Assembly: GCA_029858505.1 (NCBI GenBank)
Contig: JAOUEW010000012.1
Location: 1-33,537, forward strand
From: Deltaproteobacteria bacterium
GTDB lineage: Bacteria; SAR324; JACQKK01
Reading direction: 5' to 3'
Length of the DNA: 33,537 bases
The position numbers and the translations under genes were made by a program. Shown piece after piece: positions 272-33,345 of this stretch; position 1 is the stretch's first letter; the number at the start of each line of letters is the position of its first letter. The notes beneath the pieces are model-generated. The model saw nothing but the letters and a program-made list of their open reading frames with translations, was not told where the DNA came from and searched no databases.

Positions 272-1033
272 TCAGAAATTCCTTACAATCAATTCTTCGG
301 CGGGTACTCCCTTCCCGCCTCCTACAGTATAACGAATTGGTACTTTTTCAACCTTCAATGTTTTGAATATTTTCCTCATAACGGGGTGGTTGTTGATGGT
401 GAGTATTCCCTTCCCCCGCATGGACTCTAGCCGACCGGCCAAGGAATAATAATTCTCTATTGTAAAGTCCACTCCATACCCTTCGGTTTTCCAATATGGG
501 GGGTCGAGGAAAAACAGTGTATCTTGTCGGTCATATTTATCCAGGCAGGTTTCCCAGCCCAGATGTTCGATTGTAACTCGGGCTAGACGCAGGTGGGCAA
601 CGCTCAAGTCTTCCTCCAGGGAGGTCAGGTTCAGCCGGGGTGGGGTCGTTACGGCCGTACCAAAAGAGCGGTTTGCCACTTTGGCCCCGAAGGCCATCTT
701 TTGCAGATAAAGGAATTTTGCCGCCCGTTGGATGTCGGTATGAACCTCTCCGGGAGTCTGTTTATACCAATCGAACTGCTGGCGACTGACCAGCAGCCAC
801 TTGAACTGCCGGGCCAGCTCCTCCAGGTGATGTTGAACCACCCGGTAGAGGTTAACCAGGTCCCCGTTGATGTCGTTGATGACCTCCACTTTGGAGGGAG
901 ATTTCATGAAAAACAAGGCCGCCGCCCCGCAGAACGGCTCCACATAACAGGAATGAGCCGGAAAGAGCGGCAGAATATCTTTGGCCAGTCTGCGTTTTCC
1001 ACCAATCCAGGGGATTATCGGCTTTTGTGGCAT
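272..1033 (-). CDS. DNA adenine N6-methyltransferase (D12 class, Dam-like)
   Basis: This 253-residue protein transfers a methyl group from S-adenosylmethionine to the N6 of adenine in DNA. Conserved parts are the N-terminal PWIGGKRRL (residues 8-16), the SAM-binding motif VEPFCGAAALFF (31-42) and the catalytic motif DPPYW (177-181), all in the order and spacing of the D12/Dam class. The length is close to Dam (about 270). It is the last gene before the phage end, where Mu carries its DNA modification gene mom. Protection of phage DNA from host restriction is therefore the likely role. A gap of about 100 bp precedes it, so it may have its own promoter as mom does. The start has a modest GGA ribosome site. 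No restriction partner is seen nearby. The target sequence cannot be read from the protein. Confidence 0.93.
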   Translation of the reverse strand: MPQKPIIPWIGGKRRLAKDILPLFPAHSCYVEPFCGAAALFFMKSPSKVEVINDINGDLVNLYRVVQHHLEELARQFKWLLVSRQQFDWYKQTPGEVHTDIQRAAKFLYLQKMAFGAKVANRSFGTAVTTPPRLNLTSLEEDLSVAHLRLARVTIEHLGWETCLDKYDRQDTLFFLDPPYWKTEGYGVDFTIENYYSLAGRLESMRGKGILTINNHPVMRKIFKTLKVEKVPIRYTVGGGKGVPAEELIVRNF

Positions 1034-5675: not shown

Positions 5676-6763
5676 GCCGCGCCTTTCTGCTTTTTGGACT
5701 TGGATTTGTTCCCTAATTTATAGGGGGCCGGGTCAAAGGCGTCCTGCGGATACAGGGTTAATTCCGTTCGGGTGCCGTCTTTATCCAGCGTGTACCGGCA
5801 GGCCGCCAGCAGCAGGGTGTCATCAATTCCCAGGGTGGGGATTTCAACCCGTACCAGGGCGTTAGGCCGCCACAGCACGTCATCCGGCCCTTTCCAGCCC
5901 GGCACCAGCACCGCCAGGGCCTGCCCACGCCCGGACCGCACCGCCGCCTCCCAGGCGGCTCGGCGGTCCATCGTGGCATCGTCCCCGTGGGCTTCGGCCA
6001 CCACCACCTGGTTGCGGTACCGCGTCACATCATAATCCCTGGCCTGCCCCTTCTGGCCAAAGGCCGCCTGCGGGGCGCTCTCATCCGTCAAATGGCTTTG
6101 CCCCAACACCAAGTACACCGAATACCGCTCCGTTAGGCTCCGGGTATATTTGGCGGAGAGAACGTTCTCTCCTTCAATCAGCGATCCGGCGGAAATTTCT
6201 TTTCCCGGTTTGGTGATCCTCAGGTCTCCCTCCGGGTCGCTGGTCAGCAGCAGTCCCCGCTGGCGGGCCAGCCGCTCCAACAGTGCAAAATTTGTTTCCC
6301 CTGGATGCACCGCCACCACGCCGAAGGGCTCTCCCGGCCCGGCGAACAAATCCACCGGCACGGCATACCGGCTGGCCAGCGTGTTGGCAATCTGGTGGAT
6401 GTTTTGGCCGGTCAGATGGCCCCCATCCAACTCCGCGCAACAGTCCACCAGGTCACAGGTCAGGTCCCGGCCCTGCACCTCCACCAGGTGGGCCTGGGCC
6501 GATATTTCCCTGGTCACGGCATCCACCCAGCCGGTCACCACCAAGTCGGTACCGATCACCACCTGACAGCGGTCACCCTCCACCACCAAAAACACCCCGC
6601 CAAACTCGGTCATCCGCAGGCGGAACACCGTGGCCAGATGTTCAAAGGACGTGAATATTTCCACCTCTTCCCAGCCGGTAAAATCCTGGCCGTTTACCAG
6701 CAGACGCACGGTGTTTTTGTCATCGCCTACCTGCGGCGATACCTCCACATGAGCATCAGACAT
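5672..6763 (-). CDS. Baseplate hub protein, Mu P (gp44) family
   Basis: The 363-residue product is the hub at the centre of the baseplate, equivalent to T4 gp27. Family features are the N-terminal LLVNGQDFTGWEEVEIFTSFE strand pair, VVIGTDLVVTGWVDAV, the DLTCDLVDCCAEL segment and an ADV-like domain with GETNFALLERLARQRGLLL. The basic C-terminal tail (NKSKSKKQKGAA) is common in hubs of Mu-like phages. The start overlaps the gp43-like gene by 8 nt with an excellent GGAGG site, and the end overlaps the spike gene. Confidence 0.94.
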   Translation of the reverse strand: MSDAHVEVSPQVGDDKNTVRLLVNGQDFTGWEEVEIFTSFEHLATVFRLRMTEFGGVFLVVEGDRCQVVIGTDLVVTGWVDAVTREISAQAHLVEVQGRDLTCDLVDCCAELDGGHLTGQNIHQIANTLASRYAVPVDLFAGPGEPFGVVAVHPGETNFALLERLARQRGLLLTSDPEGDLRITKPGKEISAGSLIEGENVLSAKYTRSLTERYSVYLVLGQSHLTDESAPQAAFGQKGQARDYDVTRYRNQVVVAEAHGDDATMDRRAAWEAAVRSGRGQALAVLVPGWKGPDDVLWRPNALVRVEIPTLGIDDTLLLAACRYTLDKDGTRTELTLYPQDAFDPAPYKLGNKSKSKKQKGAA

Positions 6764-7920: not shown

Positions 7921-9744
7921 TTAGATATACCCTGGCCGCATCATCATCCCTGTTTCCACCGTGGTTTCCACTCCACGACCGCTCAAACTATTCACCCTCA
8001 TCCCCGCCGGTGCGTTCTCAAACCGAATAGATACCTCGGCTTTCTTCTCGTTCGCACTGTTTCCCAGAGCGGCGGCGCCGCCGCCCAGCAGGGCTCCCAG
8101 CAGTGCCCCAATACCGGTTCCCAGTATTGGAACGATGGAACCCATTGCCGCCCCAACGGCGGCACCGCCAAGCACGCCCACACCCATGTTTGCCGCGTTG
8201 TTCCTGTCTTGGCTCGTGGCACCCGTGAACGATTCAGCAATCTGATCCAGCCCGTATCCTACAACCGGAACCATTGCCGCCATGCCTAGCATCCCGCGCC
8301 AGCCCCCCCTCTTTCCGCCTCCTAAAATTGCAGGTCCACCCAACCCGCCAAGCCCGCCCATCGGCCAGTTGGTGATAAACACCGGTGTGACCCCGGCGGC
8401 GGCTTCCAGGGCTTTCCCTTCCGCCACACCCAACCCCACGCCGCCCATCCCCCGGAGGCCGCGCCACACAGACCAACCTGCCCCGGCCCCGCGAATCATG
8501 TTGTACCCGCCATAGGCCAGCGCGGCAGTTCCCAGGCCAGCCAAGCCCAGGCCCAGGCCGCCAAGCAGACCCGGAATATGCTGCGTGGCGGAGAGCAAAT
8601 CAGTGAGCACATGGTAGATTTCCGTGAGGATGGGCAACAGCGGTTCGCCTATCATGGCTCCGGTGTCGGTTAGTTTCGACAGCAATCCCTGGCGGCTCAT
8701 GGAGTGCGTTCCCTGGATTAATTTAATCCGTTGGTCCAGAGAGGCCGATTCCAGCGCCTTCTTTTCGATGTAATCAAACCCCTGCCCCTTCTGCTCCGCC
8801 AACAACAGAGCTTTGGCATATTGCCCTCCTTGTTGCCCAAAAATAACGGTCAAAAATTTTCCCATCTCCTGCTCGTTCATCCCCCCGGTTCGTGTTTTTA
8901 GGCGTTTAATTGCCTCGCGAACCCCGACAAATTCACCGTGCTCATAAAAACTTAATCCATTCTCCTCCATCATTTTACGTTGTTGTCTGTGCGTGGGGTT
9001 CATCCTCTCCAAGAAGTCCTTCACATCCGTGCCCACCTCTTCACGTAGAGTCTGTCCCACGCCAATCAGGGTCGTCAGGTCTTTCGGGGTAATGTTCATC
9101 AGGGCGGCTTCCGCACCGGACCGCTGGAATCCATAGGCGATCCCGCCAACAGAGAGGGACGTGGCCCCGGCCACCCTGGTTGCCCAGTCGCCTGTTTCTT
9201 TGTATTGGTTGCCCCTCAAACCAAAAGCCACACCAGCCAACGCCAGATATTGGCTGATGGCCCCAAGGTCTTCCTGGTTGGCCCCGGCCATCGCCAGGGC
9301 AGTCCACACCGCCCCGCCTTTCCCTTTGATCTCCTCCAGGGTCAATCCCGCTTTGACAAAATCATCCGTGGCCTGCAAAACTTTGGCACTGGTAAAACCG
9401 AATTCAGCACCGATTCCCCTAGCGTTATCCCTCACGTCTTTCATCGCCTCGGCCATTTTGTCGGCCCCCATCGTGGAATCCCACATGTCGCCCTTGATGC
9501 GGGCCATCAGCAGTTCAATTTCCGATGCGGCCGCCACGGCGGGCTTCAGTTTGTTCAGTCCATACAGTCCGGCGGCAATGCTGGCCGTACCCAGGTTGAT
9601 GGACCTAACCATTCGGTCGTAGTCCGCCTGGACTTGTTTCGCCCCATCGCCTAAACTATGGATATGCGCCTTCAATTTATTGAGGGCACCGGAAAACATA
9701 TCCACGGCGGTGATAGTGATGGCCAGCTTCAGCGCTTCAGACAT
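7921..9744 (-). CDS. Tail tape measure protein (Mu gp42-like)
   Basis: This 607-residue protein sets tail length and sits in the tail tube lumen. It opens with LKLAITITAVDMFSGALNKL, a typical start for tape measures of Mu-like phages, followed by a long helical region with an EFGFTSAKVLQATDDFVKAG TP901-type core. Two Gly/Ala-rich hydrophobic stretches lie at about 390-420 and 530-560. The predicted tail is short to medium. The gene is separated from the chaperone genes by 278 nt, the largest gap in the tail operon, and this gap is filled by a plus-strand gene. The minus-strand ATG (9742-9744) overlaps an ATG of that gene head to head. The ribosome site is weak (AGG). Confidence 0.93.
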   Translation of the reverse strand: MSEALKLAITITAVDMFSGALNKLKAHIHSLGDGAKQVQADYDRMVRSINLGTASIAAGLYGLNKLKPAVAAASEIELLMARIKGDMWDSTMGADKMAEAMKDVRDNARGIGAEFGFTSAKVLQATDDFVKAGLTLEEIKGKGGAVWTALAMAGANQEDLGAISQYLALAGVAFGLRGNQYKETGDWATRVAGATSLSVGGIAYGFQRSGAEAALMNITPKDLTTLIGVGQTLREEVGTDVKDFLERMNPTHRQQRKMMEENGLSFYEHGEFVGVREAIKRLKTRTGGMNEQEMGKFLTVIFGQQGGQYAKALLLAEQKGQGFDYIEKKALESASLDQRIKLIQGTHSMSRQGLLSKLTDTGAMIGEPLLPILTEIYHVLTDLLSATQHIPGLLGGLGLGLAGLGTAALAYGGYNMIRGAGAGWSVWRGLRGMGGVGLGVAEGKALEAAAGVTPVFITNWPMGGLGGLGGPAILGGGKRGGWRGMLGMAAMVPVVGYGLDQIAESFTGATSQDRNNAANMGVGVLGGAAVGAAMGSIVPILGTGIGALLGALLGGGAAALGNSANEKKAEVSIRFENAPAGMRVNSLSGRGVETTVETGMMMRPGYI

Positions 9745-10039
9745 GATGGCCTATGGGATTGTTGCCGCCCTGGTTGGGTGGATAGCCCTGGGAGGTTGGA
9801 TCATCGTGACCCAGCCTGGCTTGGGCATGTGGTTTGCCCTGCTGGGGTATTGCGCGGCTTCGTTTCTGTTCGTAGTCTGCGCCGGGGCCGGGATGTTCAT
9901 CGGCTCCGCCCTGCATGTCTATGTTTGGCCTCAAACCGATTCGGCCTCGCTGATTTTATCCGGCGCGGGGGCCGGAATGGCAGTCTGGGCCTATCTGCTG
10001 TGGCGGAAGCTGGCCAAAATCTTTACTCCTTCGGCATGA
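9719..10039 (+). CDS. Antisense small membrane protein, unknown
   Basis: This ORF points against all its neighbours. From the ATG at 9719 it encodes 106 residues; ATGs at 9743 and 9746 would give 98 or 97. I prefer 9719 because GGTGAT stands just upstream. The protein has three or four membrane segments: IVAALVGWIALGGWIIV, then WFALLGYCAASFLFVVCAG continuing into GMFIGSALHVYVW, then LILSGAGAGMAVWAYLLW. It ends with the basic RKLAKIF. The codons look like real coding sequence, and the minus strand has no credible gene in this 278-nt gap. It overlaps the first codons of the tape measure and the last codons of the chaperone extension in antisense. A superinfection-exclusion, anti-holin or other lysogenic-conversion role is possible, but no family was recognised. 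Confidence 0.6.
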   Translation: MASFSASDMMAYGIVAALVGWIALGGWIIVTQPGLGMWFALLGYCAASFLFVVCAGAGMFIGSALHVYVWPQTDSASLILSGAGAGMAVWAYLLWRKLAKIFTPSA

Positions 10040-13584: not shown

Positions 13585-14004
13585 TTACATCCCGCCGGTA
13601 TTGTCCCGGCCCCAACGCCGGGGTTGCGCGGTGAGAACGGCCTGGCCGGACGTGGTGGGCTGACCGGTTTCAATCCCCAACGTGGCCCGCCCATCGGCCA
13701 AGTCTTTCAGCCACTTGATACGCTCCTTGTGCCGGTTGGCCCTCTCTTCGGTCAGCATTCCGGGGCCGCCGGACAACTCGTACAGGGCGATATCCACCGC
13801 CACCTGCGTCAGCACCGGCGGCACAACCACCAGCGGAACGGGATAGCGGGCCGCCAGGTAGCTGTCCATCAGAGCAGAGGCATCGGCCAGGGCTTTGTCC
13901 ACCACCGGACCGTCTACCAATCCGTCACCGTTCCGGTCGGCAACCAGCAACAGGGCATCGTTTCCGTAAGCGGTCACAATGTCAGATTGGGTGGCGTAGG
14001 GCAT
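13585..14004 (-). CDS. Head-tail connector, DUF1320 (Mu gp36-like)
   Basis: This protein of 139 residues has the DUF1320 signature: YATQSDIVTAYGNDALLLVADRNGDG, LADASALMDSYLAARYPVPL, the helix VAVDIALYELSGG and ERANRHKERIKWLKDLADG. It is homologous to head completion proteins of other phages and probably closes the portal vertex. It starts 2 nt after the preceding small gene with a GGAG site. Confidence 0.94.
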   Translation of the reverse strand: MPYATQSDIVTAYGNDALLLVADRNGDGLVDGPVVDKALADASALMDSYLAARYPVPLVVVPPVLTQVAVDIALYELSGGPGMLTEERANRHKERIKWLKDLADGRATLGIETGQPTTSGQAVLTAQPRRWGRDNTGGM

Positions 14005-22205: not shown

Positions 22206-22498
22206 TCTCGATTCAGCAGATGTTCATTCATGATATCCACGGCTCGTTTTAGGCCGGACATAGATCCGGACAATTCCCGCAGGTCACCGTGGACCTGACC
22301 AACCCGGTCCGCCAACAACCGAAAATCCTCTTTGGTCGGCGCGTGTTTGATTTCGATTTCCACCCGGTCCATGCGGCTTTCCAGGCTGCCGATTTGGTCC
22401 ACCGTGGCTTGGTGCCTCCGGCTTATCCAGGCGTATACGCCAATCAAAAACGAAAATGCCCCTTGAGCAAAATCCAACCAGAACCGGTTGTCCATCAT
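22202..22498 (-). CDS. Membrane-anchored coiled-coil protein, DUF2730 (Mu gp25-like)
   Basis: The 98 residues have one N-terminal membrane segment (FWLDFAQGAFSFLIGVYAWI) followed by a coiled coil of about 65 residues (IGSLESRMDRVEIEIKH, then LLADRVGQVHGDLRELSGSM). This matches the DUF2730 group found between lysis and terminase genes of Mu-like phages. The topology is compatible with a spanin-like or holin-accessory role in lysis, but no outer-membrane lipoprotein partner is seen. It overlaps the holin gene by 4 nt. Confidence 0.82.
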   Translation of the reverse strand: MMDNRFWLDFAQGAFSFLIGVYAWISRRHQATVDQIGSLESRMDRVEIEIKHAPTKEDFRLLADRVGQVHGDLRELSGSMSGLKRAVDIMNEHLLNRE

Positions 22499-22902
22499 TC
22501 CCTCCCCTTAATAGCTCCGGTCACTGACGGGGTGATCTTTTCCAGGCTTCGTCCAATGGTGTAGCCTCCGAAGCCGATCTGCAGGAGCGTCCAGGCGTCC
22601 GGGGCAAGTCGGTTGGGCAGCACCCCAAAAGAGTCCAGGGTCACCAGACCCAGGAATATCCACATGGAGACAGGCCGCCAGGACCGCTGGAGCCAGTTTC
22701 CGCCCTGGGCGTCTGCTAGATTGATGGCGGCCTGGGCTTGGGCCACCTGCCCTTGGAGTTGGATGATTTCTGCGCTCACTTGAGCCTGGATTTTATCCAA
22801 CTCCGCCTGAGCTTTTTTCTGTTCAACCTCGTTTGGAAACAGGTTGATAATCAGGTCTGCGGCTGGTTTGAATAAACCGGCAATGGTTTCCAGCGGGCTC
22901 AT
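22495..22902 (-). CDS. Holin, 3-TM family
   Basis: The 135-residue protein belongs to the 3TM holin superfamily (GTA_holin_3TM-like). An amphipathic helix (IAGLFKPAADLIINLFP) is followed by an Ala/Gln-rich coiled coil (residues 28-65), the conserved NWLQRSWRPVSMW, and two hydrophobic segments (IFLGLVTLDSFGVL; WTLLQIGFGGYTIGRSLEK). It makes the membrane lesion that lets the peptidase reach the cell wall. It overlaps the peptidase gene by 4 nt. Confidence 0.88.
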   Translation of the reverse strand: MSPLETIAGLFKPAADLIINLFPNEVEQKKAQAELDKIQAQVSAEIIQLQGQVAQAQAAINLADAQGGNWLQRSWRPVSMWIFLGLVTLDSFGVLPNRLAPDAWTLLQIGFGGYTIGRSLEKITPSVTGAIKGRE

Positions 22903-23288
22903 TTTTCCTCCAATTGAAAGTGGGGGCCGTCGAAAAACTTATCGGGAACCCCGTCACGGTCCCAATCACCGCCCCAGGTGATAGAGATTCCCAGCGTTGC
23001 CGCAACCCCAAGCACAAAATGAGCAAATTCGATAAAACGTGAGCGGTCGGCCCAATCCAAGGGGAACGGAGCCACGTCAGCGGCCAGGCTGGGCAGGGCA
23101 TTGTGTCTGCTCTTGGGCCACGGAGTTTTGCTGTGACCTTCGGCCACGGCCTGATCTTGCTCGGCCTGGGTTCGATGGCCGCACAACACCGTGCAGTCGC
23201 GGTGTTTGATGACCTCCGTGAACAACCGCTGCAAGTCGGGGTGGCAGGTGGACAGACGGGCCAGGCTTTGAGGGGAAAACGTGGACAT
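22899..23288 (-). CDS. Endolysin, M15 family L-alanyl-D-glutamate/D-Ala peptidase
   Basis: The 129-residue zinc peptidase cuts peptide bonds in peptidoglycan. Zinc ligands are visible in the usual spacing: SRHN (His62), AADVAP (Asp71) and GPHF (His123). Residues before them (VLCGHRTQAEQDQAVAEG) are typical of phage M15C endolysins. There is no signal peptide, so it needs the holin. ATG 23288 is chosen for its AAGGAG site; the frame is open to 23486 without support and through a terminator-like hairpin. The ribosome site is partly buried in a perfect hairpin (23296-23320), which may delay translation. This is the first gene of the lysis and late block. Confidence 0.94.
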   Translation of the reverse strand: MSTFSPQSLARLSTCHPDLQRLFTEVIKHRDCTVLCGHRTQAEQDQAVAEGHSKTPWPKSRHNALPSLAADVAPFPLDWADRSRFIEFAHFVLGVAATLGISITWGGDWDRDGVPDKFFDGPHFQLEEK

Positions 23289-23295
23289 GCGGGCT

Positions 23296-23320
23296 CCTTG
23301 CGGTGAGGGTTTCCGCAAGG
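23296..23320 (-). promoter_or_regulatory. Hairpin covering the endolysin ribosome binding site
   Basis: On the minus strand CCTTGCGG (23320-23313) pairs perfectly with CCGCAAGG (23303-23296) across a 9-nt loop. The AAGG of the AAGGAG ribosome site is within the 3' arm. Pairing would hide the site and reduce early endolysin synthesis. Confidence 0.6.
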
Positions 23321-23340
23321 GTACGGCTGGTAAAGGAGGG

Positions 23341-23366
23341 AAATAAACCCGGACGGCTGTCCGGGT
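23341..23366 (-). terminator. Terminator-like hairpin, copy A of a repeated element
   Basis: A perfect 8-bp stem ACCCGGAC/GTCCGGGT (arms 23347-23354 and 23359-23366) with a 4-nt loop is followed on the minus strand by TTATTT. It separates the activator and membrane-HTH operon from the lysis genes. It shares 19 exact bases with copy B before the protease gene. It is either a terminator of the middle operon or part of the late control region, since Mu has its P-lys promoter here. Confidence 0.65.
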
Positions 23367-23391
23367 AAGGGGGGAAGGGCTAAGTTTCTCT

Positions 23392-24384
23392 TTACCCTTT
23401 CGCCTCGGCGGAATCAACTGTTTCCAGAAGGTACCGACCGGCCAGGGCGGCAAGTTTGGGAGCGCTGATGGTCTCCTTCTTTTCATTTTTAAGGCGGAAA
23501 TGATTTCCCAACATCGAAATGGTCGCAGGTTGCAGCCCTTCCCGTTCGCACCATTGCCGTAAGCTCATTTTGGATTCTGCCATGCTGATCTTGATTATGT
23601 TTTGCAGGCGTTTCACCAGTACATCATTTTCTGTTTCAGGTGTTTTTTGCCGCATGATCTGTGGCGTTTCGGTCGGGTGTTTTGTTTCAGGGGCGGGGTG
23701 TTTCGGGTGAAACGTTTCAGGCCGTTTCGGGTGAAACGTTTCAGGCCGTTTCGGGTGAAACGTTTTGGGTGTTTCAGCCGAAACGGCCTGGCCCAAAACA
23801 GCAGATACCTGGCCCGCCAGCAGGGCCGCCGCGACCTGGAACAATATCACCGCCAGCCCCGTGGCCGCCAAAACAACCACCTGGTTAAATTCGGTTGTGA
23901 CAGGGACCAAAAGGACATCGTGTTTCAGTTCCAATTCAGCCAGATTGGCCCGCGCTTGGTCTATGTGGCCCTGCCATCCAATCCTTCCTGACGCGGCCAT
24001 TTGCAGGTAATAATCCAACTCGGTCTGTTTTTTGGATAAGTTTTTTTCGGCGATTTCCAGTCTTTGCGGGCGAACTGCCTCCGCCTGCTGGGCGGCCAGC
24101 AGGGGTTTGGCCACCTGATATATGGGGCCAATGAGCAACAGGCTGCTGGCCAGCGTACCCAGGACCAGCCAGCCCCACCATTTCGGCGTCCAAAGTACCG
24201 CTGCCCCTTGCCGAAACCAGAACCAGGCCGCCAGACATCCCAGCAGCACAGATAACACGGGGCCTATGGTGTGATCGTAATACTGCCGCCAAAACGCCCA
24301 GCCGTCCCATTGCATAACCACTTCGCACCCAACCAGCGCCAAGGCGGCAGGCAAAGCCGGAATAAACAGTTTCCATTGGTTCAT
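23392..24384 (-). CDS. Membrane protein with HPKRP repeats and C-terminal HTH-like region
   Basis: I do not recognise this 330-residue protein. The first half has membrane segments at about 4-24, 38-57, 70-92 and 175-200 (including VVVLAATGLAVILFQVAAALLAG). An extracytoplasmic or coiled region with an EIAEKNLSKKQTELDYYL helix lies between the third and fourth. Then comes a tandem repeat of 8 residues (TFHPKRPE, about three copies) and a Thr/Pro/Lys linker. The last 90 residues look like a compact DNA-binding domain: MSLRQWCEREGLQPATISMLGNHF, followed by a basic helix. It overlaps the Mor-type activator by 4 nt, so they are co-translated. A membrane-tethered regulator or a sensor of cell state is an inference. 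Confidence 0.72.
   Translation of the reverse strand: MNQWKLFIPALPAALALVGCEVVMQWDGWAFWRQYYDHTIGPVLSVLLGCLAAWFWFRQGAAVLWTPKWWGWLVLGTLASSLLLIGPIYQVAKPLLAAQQAEAVRPQRLEIAEKNLSKKQTELDYYLQMAASGRIGWQGHIDQARANLAELELKHDVLLVPVTTEFNQVVVLAATGLAVILFQVAAALLAGQVSAVLGQAVSAETPKTFHPKRPETFHPKRPETFHPKHPAPETKHPTETPQIMRQKTPETENDVLVKRLQNIIKISMAESKMSLRQWCEREGLQPATISMLGNHFRLKNEKKETISAPKLAALAGRYLLETVDSAEAKG
23700..23771. repeat. 24-bp tandem repeat with GAAACGTTTC palindromes
   Basis: Two identical 24-bp units (23700-23723 and 23724-23747) and a third imperfect unit (23748-23771) lie inside the membrane-HTH gene. Each unit carries the palindrome GAAACGTTTC (23709-23718, 23733-23742; the third ends in TT). A GGCCGTTTC/GAAACGGCC pair flanks the last unit. 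In protein they encode the TFHPKRPE repeat. Confidence 0.9.
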
Positions 24385-24770
24385 ACCTCTTCCTCAAACA
24401 GGCTGACTTGGCGGTGGTCAGTTTGCGTTGGGGCCTGGGCAGGGTCAGAGCCCAGGATGCGCCTAACATGCCGGACCGTTGTGCTATACCGGCGGGCCAG
24501 AGATGCCTGTGTTTCCTCCCGGCCAAAGCGTTCGTGGATTTCCCTATTCCGTGCTTCCCGGCGGGCCTGTGCCGCCAAAGGGACGTCCAAAGTTTCCGCT
24601 CCGATTGCTTTGGAGAGAGCAATTGCAGCAGGAAGGCCAATGCACTGACTGATAGGGTGTTTTTCCACCGGCCTGCGCGGGATGTATATCCGCAAACCAC
24701 CAAACGATTCACACAGCCGCATAGCAGCATCCCGCCCAATTGCGGCTATCAGGTCTTGGGTACTTTTCAT
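24381..24770 (-). CDS. Mor/C family transcription activator
   Basis: The 129 residues match the Mor family, which turns on middle and late transcription of Mu-like phages. An N-terminal dimerisation part contains AIGRDAAMRLCESFGGLRIYIPRRP and a similar second half (CIGLPAAIALSKAIGAETL). A C-terminal HTH contains RNREIHERFGREETQASLARRY and TTVRHVRRIL. The C-terminus QVSLFEEEV looks like a sliding-clamp binding motif. It overlaps the CxxC gene upstream and the membrane-HTH gene downstream by 4 nt each. Only one Mor/C member is seen, against two (Mor, C) in Mu. Confidence 0.92.
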   Translation of the reverse strand: MKSTQDLIAAIGRDAAMRLCESFGGLRIYIPRRPVEKHPISQCIGLPAAIALSKAIGAETLDVPLAAQARREARNREIHERFGREETQASLARRYSTTVRHVRRILGSDPAQAPTQTDHRQVSLFEEEV

Positions 24771-26768: not shown

Positions 26769-27296
26769 TTATCCCACCACCTGCTCAAGGTCGGTTTCAT
26801 TGGGCTTGATGATAAAATCCTCACCCTGGCTGATCGTAATCCCCTTCAGGTGAGCGACCGTTTCCGGCTCCCGCAGGATCGCCTCTTTGTCTACCTCTTC
26901 TTTCACCCGGATAAACCGGGTGAAATCCAGCGCCCGCAGGGTATCAATCACGGCTTTCACGCTGGCCACTCGCACGCTTGGCGGGCGCATCCGCCAGGCC
27001 ACAATTCCGTGCTCGAAGTCCACTGTTTTTACTTTTCCATCGTTGGTCAGCCGCTTGCGGTTGGCCTCGCAGTAGATGCGCAGGCCCTCGGCGCAATCCT
27101 CAATGCCTTGCTTGTGCGGGGCGGCCTCACTCATCAGTTTCTGGTCAAAGGCAGATTTTTGTTCATCCACCGCTGCTTCCAGCATCTTCAATTCCCGCTG
27201 ATGCGCCCCGATGGTCATCACGTATTCAGCGGCTTCCTGGTCGGTCTTGGGCACGGCCACCGCCACGGCGTCCGTTTTCAGTCTCGTTTTTGCCAT
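26769..27296 (-). CDS. gam: Host-nuclease inhibitor Gam (Mu Gam family)
   Basis: The 175-residue protein binds DNA ends and shields them from RecBCD-type nucleases; it is related to Ku. It has the family pattern: an N-terminal helix pair (AAEYVMTIGAHQRELKMLEA, AVDEQKSAFDQKLM), EGLRIYCEANRKRLTND, then KVKTVDFEHGIVAWRMRPPSV and a C-terminal VDKEAILREPETVAHLKGI. Length equals Mu Gam (174). Ribosome site GGAG 6 nt upstream. A near-perfect inverted repeat fills the gap ahead of it. Confidence 0.95.
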   Translation of the reverse strand: MAKTRLKTDAVAVAVPKTDQEAAEYVMTIGAHQRELKMLEAAVDEQKSAFDQKLMSEAAPHKQGIEDCAEGLRIYCEANRKRLTNDGKVKTVDFEHGIVAWRMRPPSVRVASVKAVIDTLRALDFTRFIRVKEEVDKEAILREPETVAHLKGITISQGEDFIIKPNETDLEQVVG

Positions 27297-28684: not shown

Positions 28685-29239
28685 TTAGCAGGGATAGGTT
28701 TCCCCGCTGTTGTGATCGGTCACTGTTTTGTTCCGGTGGCTCCAGGCCGGGGCCAGGGGGCCGCTGTCACGTACCAGCAGATACCGCCCTTTTCGCGAAA
28801 AAATCCGTCCGGTTTGCATGTCACGGGCGGTTAGGTTGGTCACATAACCGGCCTTTCGCAGAGCCGCCACGTATTTCTCGGCAGCCCGGCGGGGGTTGAT
28901 TTCATTTCCCGTGGCGGCCAATTCCACTAGATCATCCAGCGAAAATCCCTTGCTCATTCGCATGGTTTTCCACAGCCGTTCTCGGTACGTGCCGACTGAG
29001 CGGATGCCCACGCCCAATGGTCGGCTGTTGATGGTAGGACGTTCCATTATTTTTGCCTTTCGACTGAGTTCGTATACTCCGCGCCGAGGCTGGGTAATCA
29101 GCCTCCGGCGGGCCAGCACCGCCAGGGACTGCTGGATCGCGCTTTTGCTGACTCCCTCGCACCGTCGAATGTCCCGGAGCCACAACCCGTTGGGGGCCTG
29201 GGCCAGCCGGGCGTGTATTTGTTGCGCCCGCCACATCAT
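28685..29239 (-). CDS. Early winged-helix protein, unknown
   Basis: The 184-residue protein overlaps the end of muB by 4 nt. The N-terminal 65 residues hold a winged helix (IRRCEGVSKSAIQQSLAVLA, then RRRLITQPRRGVYELS). A second helical part with FSLDDLVELAATGN and RRAAEKYVAALRKAGYVT forms a further wing-like unit, followed by GRYLLVRDSGPLAPAW. An internal ATG at residue 65 (MERPTIN) could be an alternative start. Similar proteins occur behind MuB in other Mu-like prophages. Function unknown; DNA binding likely. Confidence 0.75.
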   Translation of the reverse strand: MMWRAQQIHARLAQAPNGLWLRDIRRCEGVSKSAIQQSLAVLARRRLITQPRRGVYELSRKAKIMERPTINSRPLGVGIRSVGTYRERLWKTMRMSKGFSLDDLVELAATGNEINPRRAAEKYVAALRKAGYVTNLTARDMQTGRIFSRKGRYLLVRDSGPLAPAWSHRNKTVTDHNSGETYPC

Positions 29240-29985
29240 TTGTGATTCCCTCCGTTCAAAGCCCGCAGTTTTGGGCGCGGCCCCTGAAACTCATAGATCA
29301 TCGGCAGGTCTTTGGTCTGGGCCAGCCCAATCTCGGCCAGGCCGTTGGTCTTGGCATGGGCCTCGGCCACCGACAGGGCGTTCAGCGCCAGCCGAATTTT
29401 GCCATTGCTGGCCGTAGTGATGTGATCCACCAGGTCCGCCCCAATCCTCACCTCGGCCAGTCCGGCCAGTGCCCGCACGTCGTCTATCGTGGCGGGTTGA
29501 TACTCAACCACCCGGCCTACCCGGCTGGCCACCTGAGGATATTTGGCCACCTTGGCGTGCAGGGCTTCCATTCCAACCATGATGACCACGCACTCGGTGG
29601 TATCGTTTAGGTCCCGGAAGGTTTCCAAGGTGCGTGAATCGTGGAACAGGTGATCGGCTTCGTCCACCACGAGCGCGGGGAACCCGGCGGCGGCCAGACG
29701 TTCTACCACCCGGTGGAACAGGCGGTCACGCCCATACGGAGGGTGGCGGTCCCCCAGTTCCACGCAGAGTTCCCGCAGGGCCGAATGCTCCGTCCAGTGC
29801 GCTTTTCCGCGCAAATAAACGGCTCCGTGTTCGATGGCGAACCGCCGAACACTCTTGGTTTTTCCCAGGCCGGGGTGTCCGGTGACCAAAATCAGCCCCG
29901 CTTCTCGGGCGGCTCGGCGCTGCACCGCCGCCACCGCTGCCAGCAACCGTTGGTGGTTGGTTGTTGCCACAAATGCTGTTTTCAT
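29236..29985 (-). CDS. MuB-like target DNA activator ATPase
   Basis: This is a 249-residue AAA+ ATPase that chooses target DNA and stimulates the transposase. Walker A is GHPGLGKT (36-43) and Walker B ALVVDEAD (104-111), followed by a DTTECVVIMVGME sensor-1 strand and an ASRVGRVVEY arginine-finger segment. ATG 29985 has a perfect GGAGGA site; the frame continues to 30111 but across two dyads. Compared with Mu B (312) it lacks the N-terminal HTH domain. The gene follows muA after 94 nt. Confidence 0.94.
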   Translation of the reverse strand: MKTAFVATTNHQRLLAAVAAVQRRAAREAGLILVTGHPGLGKTKSVRRFAIEHGAVYLRGKAHWTEHSALRELCVELGDRHPPYGRDRLFHRVVERLAAAGFPALVVDEADHLFHDSRTLETFRDLNDTTECVVIMVGMEALHAKVAKYPQVASRVGRVVEYQPATIDDVRALAGLAEVRIGADLVDHITTASNGKIRLALNALSVAEAHAKTNGLAEIGLAQTKDLPMIYEFQGPRPKLRALNGGNHK

Positions 29986-30017
29986 GCGCTTCCTCCGTGG
30001 GTGTTGACAACAGATTC

Positions 30018-30062
30018 GGAGGCGGGGTAGGCTCAAACATCCTGGTTTGAGGCCCTGCCTCC
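30018..30062. other. Nested dyad between muA and muB
   Basis: Inner arms CTCAAAC/GTTTGAG (30032-30038, 30045-30051) with a 6-nt loop are enclosed by GGAGGC/GCCTCC (30018-30023, 30057-30062). It lies in the 94-nt gap. It might adjust the ratio of MuB to MuA or serve as a protein site. Confidence 0.5.
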
Positions 30063-30068
30063 CGTTCA

Positions 30069-30099
30069 GCCGCCGGTGCTCACCCGGCGGCTTTTTGTT
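30069..30099 (+). terminator. Intrinsic terminator on the plus strand, over the muA stop
   Basis: A perfect 8-bp GC stem (GCCGCCGG 30069-30076, CCGGCGGC 30084-30091) with a 7-nt loop is directly followed on the plus strand by TTTTTGTTT. It is a textbook rho-independent terminator for transcription antisense to muA. On the minus strand the same stem covers the stop codon of muA. Confidence 0.7.
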
Positions 30100-32122
30100 T
30101 GTGGGGTTCAAACCCCACCAGTTCCCGGAACACCGGGTCTTTCAGTCGTTCCGCCAAATCCAGCCTGTCTCCATCTGTTACCGCTGGCCCGTTTTTCCTC
30201 ACCCACAACGCCCAGTCCCGGTCGGCTAAGTCCCCGCTAAACCGGGGTCTGCCGTTGATTTCCGCCGGGGCCGGTTCGGCCAAAGCCGTCATTTCCTGGG
30301 CATCAACCTGTTCCTGCAGAGTGAGAGGTTTGGGCGCGGCCCGTTCCTCTCGTTCTAGATCAATCCCCTTAGCCAGGGCCTTGTTTTCCAGCCTGCGCAC
30401 CTGCGCTTGCTGGCGCTGGTGATCTGCCCGTTCGACGTAGGAGATTATTTTGTACGGCTGGCTGTTGGCCCGAATGCCCGCTTCGCAAATCCGCACACCG
30501 TCCAGGGTCATCACCCACACCCGGCTGGGGTCGTGGATGTCAAATGCAATCCGCATCCGCTCTCCGTGGAACTCGGCCAGGTCAGCGGAAAAATACCGCT
30601 GGCCCATCAGACTCACCTCGCCCCGCGCCACGGTGCGGATTTCCTCTGGCATCCACAGGGTGGCGTCCTCTTCCGGCATCAACGGCTGCCAGCCCTGGGT
30701 CAGAGCGGCGTCCCACGCTTCTTTCGGGGTTTGGTGCCGTGCCCGGCCCGTGGCCGGGTCGGTTATTTTCAGCAGGCCCCGGTGCGGCCGGTGGTTGTAA
30801 TCGTCCAGCGCCGCCCGCACCAGCCCCAAAAAATCATCCCAACTGGGGAGCCCCTGCCCCGTTCTGCGGGTGACCCTGTAGGCCAGGGTTTTGGCTTCGG
30901 GGTCCATGTCTTTTCCCATGTAGGTGGGGAGCATCTTGGCCGCCCGCACCCACACCGTCCGGTGGAATCTCTCTACAATGCCTTTGGACTGGGGGCGGTA
31001 GGCGATGGAGTGATCCAGTTGGATGCCCAGCCGGGCCATGAAGCCAGTCACCGGATTTTTCATTAAGTCGTTCTTAAACCCGCTGCCGTTGTCCACGTAA
31101 AAGATGGCCGGTATACCGTGGGTTTTGCAGGCGTGCTTCAGCGCGTCCAAAACTACGATGGCCCCCTCCGCCAACCCAATCCCAAACCCCACAGCTTTCC
31201 TGGTGGCTACGTCTATCACGGTGACGATTTCCGGGCGGATGGGGAGACCTGTGCGGGGGTTCCCAACTTCGGCATCCCAGGTGTGGCCGTCCGCAACCAC
31301 CACATCCCCCGGCCATAACTGGCTGGTGTCCCGCCGCGCAAACGGGCGGATGGCCAGAAGCTCCCGCTGGCCCATCCGGCCCCGGTTGACCTCCACGTTG
31401 CCCAGGCGCCGCAACAGGGTGCGGGCCTGGTCGTAACTGGGCGGGGTGACCCCAGCGGGCAAAAGCCCTGGGGTACGCAGATATCTCACGCAGTCGGTCA
31501 GGGCCGGTTTCTGGGGCTTCCGGTACGTTTTCAGCAGCGCTGGTGCCCAGGGCGGTGTGGTGGCGGTTTGTTTGACCCTGGGGGCCACTGCCGTTGTCCC
31601 ACTGCGTTCCTGGGCCAGCCAGCGGTGGATAGAGCGACTGGATAGCGCCCGGCTTTTCCCCAATCTGGCATTGGCCGCCGACACTAGCCGCTGGATGTGC
31701 TCCGGCAGGGTGCCCCCCCTGGCCTGGGACACCACGATTTCCACGGCCCGCTTCAGCCGGATTCCCCGCTCCGCCATGACCCTGCGAACGTGGACGATGA
31801 TGCCCAACCGGGCATCCATCGCCTGGGTCTGCCAGTCGGCCAAAGCCGTGATGAGAGGCAGGGGCACCGGCAAAGCGGGCGGCAGGGCGGATTCCTCCGC
31901 CGGTTTCAGCAGGGCCGCCTGGGTTTCCGGCGGCAGGGCCGACAGAGAATATAATTTTTGGAGCCCCCCAAACACCACCACTTCCCGGACTGCCCATTTT
32001 TCCCGGGCCGCTCTGGCCCGCACCTGCCGTTCCGTCCCCGGCAGCCCCGGCAGACCGGCCAACTGCCTGGCGGAGTAGTAACCCGATGTGTTTTCGATCA
32101 CCTTAGCCTCTCGTTGAGCCAT
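30080..32122 (-). CDS. Transposase MuA (DDE recombinase)
   Basis: The 680-residue transposase cuts the phage ends and joins them to new DNA. Order: N-terminal DNA-binding (Mu-type) domain 12-75 with SARQLAGLPGLPGTERQVRAR; end-binding helical domains to about 260; DDE domain with Asp278 (VVADGH), Asp344 (FYVDNGSG) and Glu384 (GIVERFHR), close to Mu 269/336/392; then the beta-barrel domain and a C-terminal helical part for MuB and ClpX contact. ATG 32122 is used; an in-frame ATG at 32176 has a better AGGGAG site and would add 18 residues. It overlaps the preceding gene by 25 (or 79) nt. Confidence 0.96.
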   Translation of the reverse strand: MAQREAKVIENTSGYYSARQLAGLPGLPGTERQVRARAAREKWAVREVVVFGGLQKLYSLSALPPETQAALLKPAEESALPPALPVPLPLITALADWQTQAMDARLGIIVHVRRVMAERGIRLKRAVEIVVSQARGGTLPEHIQRLVSAANARLGKSRALSSRSIHRWLAQERSGTTAVAPRVKQTATTPPWAPALLKTYRKPQKPALTDCVRYLRTPGLLPAGVTPPSYDQARTLLRRLGNVEVNRGRMGQRELLAIRPFARRDTSQLWPGDVVVADGHTWDAEVGNPRTGLPIRPEIVTVIDVATRKAVGFGIGLAEGAIVVLDALKHACKTHGIPAIFYVDNGSGFKNDLMKNPVTGFMARLGIQLDHSIAYRPQSKGIVERFHRTVWVRAAKMLPTYMGKDMDPEAKTLAYRVTRRTGQGLPSWDDFLGLVRAALDDYNHRPHRGLLKITDPATGRARHQTPKEAWDAALTQGWQPLMPEEDATLWMPEEIRTVARGEVSLMGQRYFSADLAEFHGERMRIAFDIHDPSRVWVMTLDGVRICEAGIRANSQPYKIISYVERADHQRQQAQVRRLENKALAKGIDLEREERAAPKPLTLQEQVDAQEMTALAEPAPAEINGRPRFSGDLADRDWALWVRKNGPAVTDGDRLDLAERLKDPVFRELVGFEPHKQKAAG

Positions 32123-32577
32123 TTCCTGGTCTTTCTCAACCGCTGGTTTTCCGCCTCGATTTTCCCCAGTTTCCATTCGTCTATCTCCCTTCCGGTGATC
32201 AGTTTTCCGCCCCGCAGGGCGGCCAGCCAGTCGGTGATGAGGGGCTCTCCCAGGGCCGCCTCCAGGGCGGGCACCAGGTGCGCCGGAATCTGCCACGCCG
32301 TCCGGCTCTCGCCGCACCAAGCGTCCAGGTGGGCCTTGGTGTACTTCCGCCCGGTCAGGTCGCTCACACGGTCGGCAATCTGATCCCGGCTTAACTTGGA
32401 GCGCTTCAGTGCTTCCCGCAGCAGACCCCGCACCGCCTGGTCCAAGTCCATTCCACCCGCCACGGCGGGCAGGGGGCGGGGTACCGTGTCGTCCCACAAA
32501 ATTGCGTCAAACCCCATCTGCCGGGGGTCGTTCGTTCGTTTGGCCATGCGGCTCTGCTGATGCTGATGAGCGGCCAT
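32098..32577 (-). CDS. Conserved protein preceding MuA
   Basis: The protein has 159 residues (149 if the ATG at 32547, MAKRTNDPRQMGFD, is used, which looks more like the family start). It has a helical region with DQAVRGLLREALKRSKLSRDQI, TGRKYTKAHLDAW, and PAHLVPALEAALGEPLITDWLA. A closing coiled helix follows. Such proteins with an HTH-like motif (SRDQIADRVSDLTGRKYTK) stand directly before the transposase gene in many Mu-like prophages; a Ner-like or transpososome accessory role is possible but not shown. Neither start has a strong ribosome site; coupling to the micro-ORFs upstream is likely. Confidence 0.78.
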   Translation of the reverse strand: MAAHQHQQSRMAKRTNDPRQMGFDAILWDDTVPRPLPAVAGGMDLDQAVRGLLREALKRSKLSRDQIADRVSDLTGRKYTKAHLDAWCGESRTAWQIPAHLVPALEAALGEPLITDWLAALRGGKLITGREIDEWKLGKIEAENQRLRKTRKWLNERLR

Positions 32578-32705: not shown

Positions 32706-32765
32706 AAAAATGGGCCACCCCAGGGGCGGGGGTTGGCGGGGGGGAAGGACCGCCCCCAGGGTGGC
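32706..32765 (-). terminator. Long G/C hairpin with T5 tail
   Basis: Arms 32750-32765 and 32714-32729 pair in 14 of 16 positions. On the minus strand the stem is followed by CCATTTTT (T-run 32710-32706). It is the second of two terminator-like structures after the BRO-like gene and stands right in front of the micro-ORF ribosome site. The plus-strand loop region is very G-rich (G-runs at 32723-32744) and could form a quadruplex. Confidence 0.6.
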
Positions 32766-32769
32766 TTGT

Positions 32770-32816
32770 AAAAAGCGCCTGGCTCCATGCCGATTAAGGG
32801 GCTTCCGCCCCGGCGC
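32770..32816 (-). terminator. Terminator after the BRO-like regulator
   Basis: Outer stem GCGCC/GGCGC (32812-32816, 32775-32779) encloses an inner GGGGC/GCCCC hairpin (32807-32811, 32798-32802) and is followed on the minus strand by TTTTT (32774-32770). It begins 8 nt after the stop codon of the regulator gene. Confidence 0.6.
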
Positions 32817-32823
32817 TGTCTGT

Positions 32824-33345
32824 TCAATTGACCAGCCCGTCCAGTTTCTTGGCCAGTCGGATCAGCGGCTGGAGCTCCGCCACCGCCGCCCGAAAATCCA
32901 GCACGGGAGTTCCCCTGTTTTTAACCTTGCCCATCATGATTTCAAGCAGAGTCACCCGCATCTTCAGGTCTTGAATGTCCTCCATGTCCTTAAAATTCAC
33001 CTGGTTTTCAATTTCCTTCAGCACCAAGTCTTCCGCCCAGTCCCGGAACCGTTTGGCCCGTTCCGATTTAATGAAAAACCCCAGGCGGACAACACCGCGC
33101 TTCGTCCAGAGAGTTGCCTTCTGCAGCCCTCCAAGGGTGTGAATATTATTCACACCCCAATGCTTGCCTTCCGCCAATTCATCAGCATGAATAGATTTGT
33201 GTTTTCTGATTGTCTCCTCGGTCACCCCAAAGCCCGTAGCCACCTCGCGGGTGTTCAGCCACCAACCGTGGATTTCATCCGGCATGAGGTGTAGCGTCAC
33301 CCCGTCAAAACTCTCAATTTTGGAAGGTCGAACGTTTGAGTGCAT
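32824..33345 (-). CDS. Phage regulatory protein, BRO-N/ORF6N-like
   Basis: The 173 residues carry an N-terminal DNA-binding part: WWLNTREVATGFGVTEETIR, then KHKSIHADELAEGKHW. The segment TLWTKRGVVRLGFFIKSERAKRFRDWAEDL is conserved in antirepressor-type and DinD-like proteins; key residues are TKRGV and RAKRFRDWAE. A coiled coil follows (DMEDIQDLKMRVTLLEIMMG). Probably an antirepressor or early regulator. It has only a weak ribosome site, is followed by a double terminator, and contains a 23-bp palindrome in its middle. Confidence 0.75.
   Translation of the reverse strand: MHSNVRPSKIESFDGVTLHLMPDEIHGWWLNTREVATGFGVTEETIRKHKSIHADELAEGKHWGVNNIHTLGGLQKATLWTKRGVVRLGFFIKSERAKRFRDWAEDLVLKEIENQVNFKDMEDIQDLKMRVTLLEIMMGKVKNRGTPVLDFRAAVAELQPLIRLAKKLDGLVN
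33135..33157. promoter_or_regulatory. 23-bp palindrome GGGTGTGAAT-ATT-ATTCACACCC
   Basis: Perfect 10-bp arms with three central A/T bases lie inside the regulator gene (codons for GVNNIHT). The form is typical for an operator of a dimeric HTH repressor. Coding constraint would not by itself produce such symmetry. Confidence 0.5.

What the first reader, a model, noticed from the sequence alone, without database searches (positions are those of the whole stretch)
9719..10039. Antisense membrane protein gene embedded in the tail operon
Every other gene runs on the minus strand with almost no gaps. Between tail chaperone and tape measure there is a 278-nt gap whose only good coding sequence is on the plus strand: about 100 residues with three or four membrane segments and natural codon use. 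Its start overlaps the tape-measure ATG head to head and its end overlaps the chaperone extension. It could be expressed in the lysogen, when the late operon is silent (superinfection exclusion or host conversion). It may also interfere with tail gene expression by antisense RNA.
Basis: partly seen in the sequence, partly recalled or inferred. Interest (0 to 1): 0.8.

Follow-up and report, generated by a model that had tools for sequence, protein, structure and literature searches.

The report
Antisense membrane gene in phage tail operon
A Mu-like prophage carries, inserted backwards between two tail genes, a small gene for a membrane protein, and about 6% of its surveyed relatives carry mostly unrelated small membrane-protein genes in the same place and orientation; they probably work in the dormant prophage, for example by keeping other phages out, but nobody has tested this.

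Summary
The + strand ORF 9719-10039 (106 aa, three predicted membrane helices) is the only plausible coding sequence in a 278-nt gap between the tail assembly chaperone extension and the tape measure gene (TMP). It has native codon use, the best Shine-Dalgarno match of 239 + strand ATGs tested, and a chance of about 2 in 10,000 in shuffles. Phages with an orthologous TMP lack the gap, so the window probably carries an insertion.

The protein has no detectable homologue, so its own selection could not be tested. The arrangement does recur: among 182 distinct Mu-like sheath-to-TMP junctions, 11 others have an antisense membrane ORF in the same slot, from about six families. By a strict scan none was found at the other 168 junctions. 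Two of these families show purifying selection in the antisense frame (dN/dS 0.11-0.29). I therefore read it as a moron gene.

Best explanation: an inner-membrane protein made in the lysogen, most likely a superinfection-exclusion factor. It occupies the slot of HK97 gp15 with the orientation of Tab in Mu-like JBD26. Coding status is well supported; expression and function are inferred. Antisense regulation is possible but unsupported.

The parts
9719..10039 (+). Antisense membrane-protein gene: 106 aa, three predicted TM helices; an in-frame GTG at 9716 is an alternative start
9706..9714 (+). Shine-Dalgarno GGCGGTGAT (8 of 9 to GGAGGTGAT), 4 nt before ATG 9719; duplex energy -12.3 against -0.3 for the internal ATG 9743. 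It is antisense to TMP codons ITA, so part of the match may come from TMP conservation
9629..9657 (+). Candidate promoter TGGACT-17-TAAACT inside the TMP coding region; modest evidence (rank 6 against 85 control stretches; below the threshold of the consensus scan, which found none)
9745..10022 (.). 278-nt insert relative to phages with an orthologous TMP
10026..10031 (-). AAGGAG followed by TAAAG at the end of the chaperone extension: probably the former TMP ribosome site, now 281 nt from the TMP ATG (inference)
7921..9744 (-). Tape measure protein, 607 aa
10157..10486 (-). Tail assembly chaperone (gp41-like), 109 aa
10023..10156 (-). Shifted-frame extension of the chaperone (KWLKELDRAVLALGMKTGWTRTEILDLDMTRLAFYLEEISKMVMPKE), resembling the extension in L070
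9720..10016 (.). Imperfect inverted repeat at the two ends of the insert (9720-9733 and 10003-10016, 13 of 14); may be chance

Best explanation
The + strand ORF is a moron: an accessory gene inserted backwards at the junction of the chaperone extension and TMP of a Mu-like prophage. It encodes a 106-residue inner-membrane protein with three helices. Shown by sequence: the ORF, its codon use, its hydropathy, its ribosome site, the extra DNA relative to orthologous phages, and the recurrence of antisense membrane ORFs in this slot. Inferred: because it points against the late operon, it is transcribed on its own from the silent prophage, from a promoter within the 5' end of TMP. Inferred: the protein sits in the inner membrane and blocks entry of related phages, most likely at TMP-dependent DNA passage across the inner membrane, as proposed for HK97 gp15. 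Its place next to TMP would let the exclusion gene and the TMP variant it must spare travel together. The slot tolerates insertions perhaps because TMP is needed in only a few copies per virion (general knowledge).
For: Coding: codon score and shuffles; SD 8/9, the only one of 239 + strand ATGs at that level, energy -12.3. Insertion: phages with orthologous TMP (31-34% identity) have the TMP ATG a few nt after the extension stop; TMP in the window has a weak ribosome site (-2.4 against a median of -5.4). Recurrence: chaperone stop to TMP start has median 116 nt and 95th percentile 184 nt at 129 junctions; 13 exceed 300 nt (leaving out L074, whose insertion lies one gene upstream), and 11 of these hold an antisense membrane ORF. 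By a strict automatic test (55 aa or more, two or more helices), 8 of 14 enlarged or inserted junctions pass on the antisense strand and 0 on the sense strand, against 0 of 168 other junctions on either strand; shuffles average 0.4%. Selection: L109/L110 dN/dS 0.29 with third-position excess (10/8/21), L203 family 0.11-0.13. Function: HK97 gp15 lies between the frameshifted chaperone and TMP and is a known exclusion protein escaped by hybrids with other tube and TMP genes (PMC10883804); Tab of Mu-like JBD26 is an antisense moron in the late operon with its own promoter (PMC10884400). A holin is encoded elsewhere.
Against: No homologue of this protein was found, so its own selection cannot be measured. 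No match to any defence family. No RNA evidence; the promoter match is unremarkable and the consensus scan found none. gp15 is a sense-strand protein of another family (YebO-like) in a siphophage, whereas this is a contractile-tailed phage type. The ORF's stop codon lies inside the flanking chaperone extension, and its best start inside TMP, which is untidy for a cassette. Two enlarged junctions (L193, L241) have no such ORF.
Confidence: 0.5

Rival explanations
1. A moron that benefits the lysogen in another way: a membrane protein altering host physiology, transport or stress, with no role against phages.
For: Same gene-level evidence; no sequence link to any exclusion or defence protein; families in this slot differ, so functions may differ.
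Against: Repeated placement beside TMP of unrelated membrane proteins suggests a link with TMP, and the one characterised gene found in this slot, HK97 gp15, is an exclusion protein.
Confidence: 0.3
2. The transcript, not the protein, matters: antisense RNA against the TMP ribosome site and the chaperone end tunes tail gene expression.
For: The + ORF overlaps the TMP 5' end and the chaperone extension end.
Against: Synonymous constraint in the antisense frame of two families, conserved hydropathy and native codon use all point to protein. Most related phages have no insert.
Confidence: 0.07
3. A late lysis or virion factor such as a second holin, antiholin or membrane component.
For: Small size and several helices.
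Against: Wrong strand for the late operon; a holin (22498-22902) and an endolysin (22902-23486) are present together elsewhere.
Confidence: 0.05
4. A chance ORF in a spacer or in a decayed insert.
For: No homologue found; antisense ORFs of this length are common in this GC-rich DNA.
Against: Shuffle chance 0.02% for three helices, codon score, SD, and recurrence at the same slot.
Confidence: 0.08

Closest known systems
HK97 gp15 moron (superinfection exclusion)
   Same: Small membrane protein encoded exactly between the frameshifted chaperone and TMP
   Different: Sense strand with its own terminator, YebO-like family, siphophage; no shared family with the window protein
Tab of Pseudomonas Mu-like phage JBD26
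   Same: Small moron on the strand opposite the late operon of a Mu-like phage, expressed from its own promoter in the prophage (PMC10884400)
   Different: Lies between the terminase genes, blocks tail assembly, paired with an anti-Tab gene; not described as a membrane protein in the passages read
Antisense membrane ORFs at the same slot in Mu-like phages (L024, L047/L109/L110, L077, L203/L134/L041/L044, L227, L232), found here
   Same: Slot, orientation, small size, two to three helices
   Different: No significant sequence similarity to the window protein; L047 and L109 are related to each other

Membership tests
Phage moron | Extra gene present between two genes that are adjacent in related phages | tested here: met
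   Orthologous-TMP phages L070/L104 and L105/L106 lack the insert
Phage moron | Own promoter and expression from the repressed prophage | tested here: inconclusive
   Candidate TGGACT-17-TAAACT ranks 6 against 85 controls; consensus scan found none; no RNA data
Phage moron | Own terminator (usual, not universal) | tested here: inconclusive
   No terminator-like site on the + strand close after the stop at 10039; simple consensus scan only
HK97 gp15 family | Sequence membership (YebO-like, PF13974) | tested here: not met
   gp15 matches PF13974; the window protein matches no Pfam family
HK97 gp15 family | Located between chaperone and TMP | tested here: met
HK97 gp15 family | Blocks DNA injection of related phages | not testable with these tools
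   Needs an infection assay
Tab | Located between terminase genes with an anti-Tab partner | tested here: not met
   Window gene lies in the tail operon with no partner gene in the gap
Holin | Match to a holin family | tested here: not met
   No PHROG holin match; the phage holin is at 22498-22902

The most novel reading that the evidence does not exclude
The chaperone-TMP junction of Mu-like phages is a standing slot for unrelated, antisense, lysogen-expressed membrane proteins, each matched to the neighbouring TMP, so that exclusion specificity and the DNA-entry protein it must spare move as one swappable unit.
Probability: 0.3. Interest if true: 0.75.

Novelty: new variant of a known kind. 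Interest (0 to 1): 0.57.

Why it matters
Morons are usually noticed one at a time. Here, mostly unrelated small membrane-protein genes are found again and again in one slot of a tail operon, on the wrong strand, where family libraries miss them (those scanned matched nothing convincing in Pfam, PHROGs or PADLOC). If they are exclusion proteins, TMP of Mu-like contractile-tailed phages becomes a likely target at the inner membrane, a step that is poorly understood, and the slot becomes a source of new exclusion genes that can be found by position alone.

Tried and rejected
Homologues of the 106-aa protein: viral contigs (only the window's own contig), 58 genomes (only noise besides itself), Pfam, PHROGs, PADLOC and tblastn against phages, all negative. 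A sheath single-protein search of genome contigs found nothing; the alignment search worked. L110 and L203 proteins against phage records: no match. A cluster of 11 antisense two-helix ORFs about 2 kb upstream of TMP was rejected as an artefact: these Ala-rich ORFs are antisense to the sheath gene. The original gp15 paper is not held; its content is cited through a later paper. Fold search was not run because the single-sequence model is of low confidence. Literature searches found no description of this antisense slot, which covers open-licence papers only.

Full report
What the window is. The 33,537-base window equals a complete contig (IMGVR_UViG_3300022208_000018; contig 7 of genome G000). 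It encodes a Mu-like prophage: transposase (30080-32497), MuB-like protein (29236-30111), Gam (26769-27296), a late activator (24381-24770), endolysin and holin (22495-23486), head genes, sheath, tube, chaperone, TMP, DNA circulation protein and tail fibre, all on the minus strand.

The observation. TMP starts at 9744 and the shifted-frame extension of the chaperone stops at 10023-10025, leaving 278 nt. The + ORF 9719-10039 fills this gap and overlaps both neighbours. It has three hydrophobic segments and GRAVY 1.12. Scored by the phage's own synonymous codon use it is as good as the real genes (0.12-0.14 against a mean of 0.114), while the other five frames of the gap score 0.014 or less. ORF length alone is not informative here: 20% of shuffles give an ATG ORF of 90 aa or more; with three hydrophobic segments 0.02% do. 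ATG 9719 has GGCGGTGAT, eight of nine to the extended Shine-Dalgarno, the only + strand ATG of 239 with that score, and a duplex energy of -12.3. The sequence is antisense to TMP codons, so part of this match could follow from TMP conservation. A promoter-like pair TGGACT-17-TAAACT lies about 60 nt upstream of the start, but five of 85 control stretches score higher.

An insertion. The TMP of L070/L103/L104 and L105/L106 is orthologous to that of the window over the N-terminal 460 residues (31-34% identity). In these phages the TMP ATG follows the extension stop by a few nt. In the window an AAGGAG-TAAAG sits at the extension end, as expected just before an ATG (compare AAGGAGTAAAT-ATG before the gene at 14004), while the actual TMP ATG has a weak site (-2.4; median of other junctions -5.4). 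The simplest reading is that about 278 nt were inserted between the ribosome site and start of TMP. The direction of change is inferred from two outgroup types.

The slot recurs. I collected Mu-like loci through the sheath gene and obtained 182 distinct sheath-to-TMP junctions. The distance from chaperone stop to TMP start has median 116 nt (95th percentile 184) at 129 junctions without an antisense membrane ORF; it exceeds 300 nt at 14 of the 141 junctions that could be measured. One of these, L074, has its insertion one gene upstream, between tube and chaperone, also with an antisense multi-helix ORF. Of the remaining 13, 11 hold an antisense membrane ORF (window, L024, L047, L109, L110, L203, L134, L041, L044, L227, L232) and two do not (L193, L241). 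L077 has one too, with a 221-nt gap. This makes 12 of 182 junctions, window included. Scanning along the locus, antisense two-helix ORFs peak in the 100-nt bin just upstream of TMP (leaving aside an artefact inside the sheath gene), and no sense-strand ones occur there. With a strict test fixed for all loci, 8 of 14 enlarged or inserted junctions pass on the antisense strand, none on the sense strand, and none of 168 other junctions on either; shuffles of the same gaps pass at 0.4% on average. The 14 were chosen after seeing the ORFs in part, and several are related, so the binomial figure printed overstates the case; about seven independent families remain, the window's included. L047 and L109 are related to each other (z = 6); the window protein matches none of the others.

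Selection. Two families have variants. L109 and L110 differ at 39 of 201 positions (10/8/21 by codon position), dN/dS 0.29; the other five frames give 0.41-1.45. Three variants of the L203 family give 0.11-0.13. The counts are small, but both point to protein-coding genes on the antisense strand. The window's own family has one member and cannot be tested.

How it probably works. An antisense gene inside a late operon cannot be expressed by the late promoter, so it would need its own, and could be active while the prophage is silent. Tab of the Mu-like phage JBD26 is the demonstrated case: antisense, own promoter, expressed from the prophage (PMC10884400). The slot itself is that of HK97 gp15, an inner-membrane exclusion protein; HK97 hybrids with the tube and TMP genes of HK022 escape it (PMC10883804). 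TMPs are also reported as partners of inner-membrane defence (SNIPE; PMC13190303). From these I infer that the window gene is a superinfection-exclusion protein acting at DNA entry, with TMP as the likely target. I put about 0.9 on a real protein-coding gene, 0.75 on expression in the lysogen, and 0.5 on exclusion.

Limits. No expression data; the collections exclude much; host taxonomy was not resolved; literature coverage is open-licence only. The general claim about the slot rests on an automatic hydropathy scan with simple thresholds.

Noticed in passing
L023 7882-8088 (-); L273 8278-8775 (-); L027 8960-9199 (-): Antisense genes directly after TMP: annotated hypothetical CDS in Chromohalobacter phage YPCBV-1 and Alteromonadaceae phage B23, and a 79-aa two-helix ORF in L027. 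The 3' side of TMP may be a second moron slot.
   Followed up: partly
L074 6866-7282 (-): 138-aa antisense ORF with several hydrophobic segments inserted between the tail tube and chaperone genes.
   Followed up: partly
L054 10875-11387 (-): 170-aa antisense four-helix ORF further downstream in a Mu-like locus with an unusual gene order.
   Followed up: no
L193 about 6148-6470; L241 about 6126-6703: Enlarged chaperone-TMP junctions (323 and 578 nt) without an antisense membrane ORF; content unexplained.
   Followed up: no
window 9720-9733 and 10003-10016: Inverted repeat (13 of 14) at the two ends of the insert; the left arm is TMP coding sequence that is similar in relatives, so it may be chance or a trace of how the insert arose.
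   Followed up: no
window 32710-33294 (+) and 32824-33345 (-): Overlapping ORFs at the right end where a Mu-like repressor would be expected: the + ORF matches no family, the - ORF weakly matches Bro-N. The repressor was not identified.
   Followed up: partly
window 272-1033 (-): DNA methyltransferase at the far end of the late genes, in the position of the Mu modification genes.
   Followed up: no
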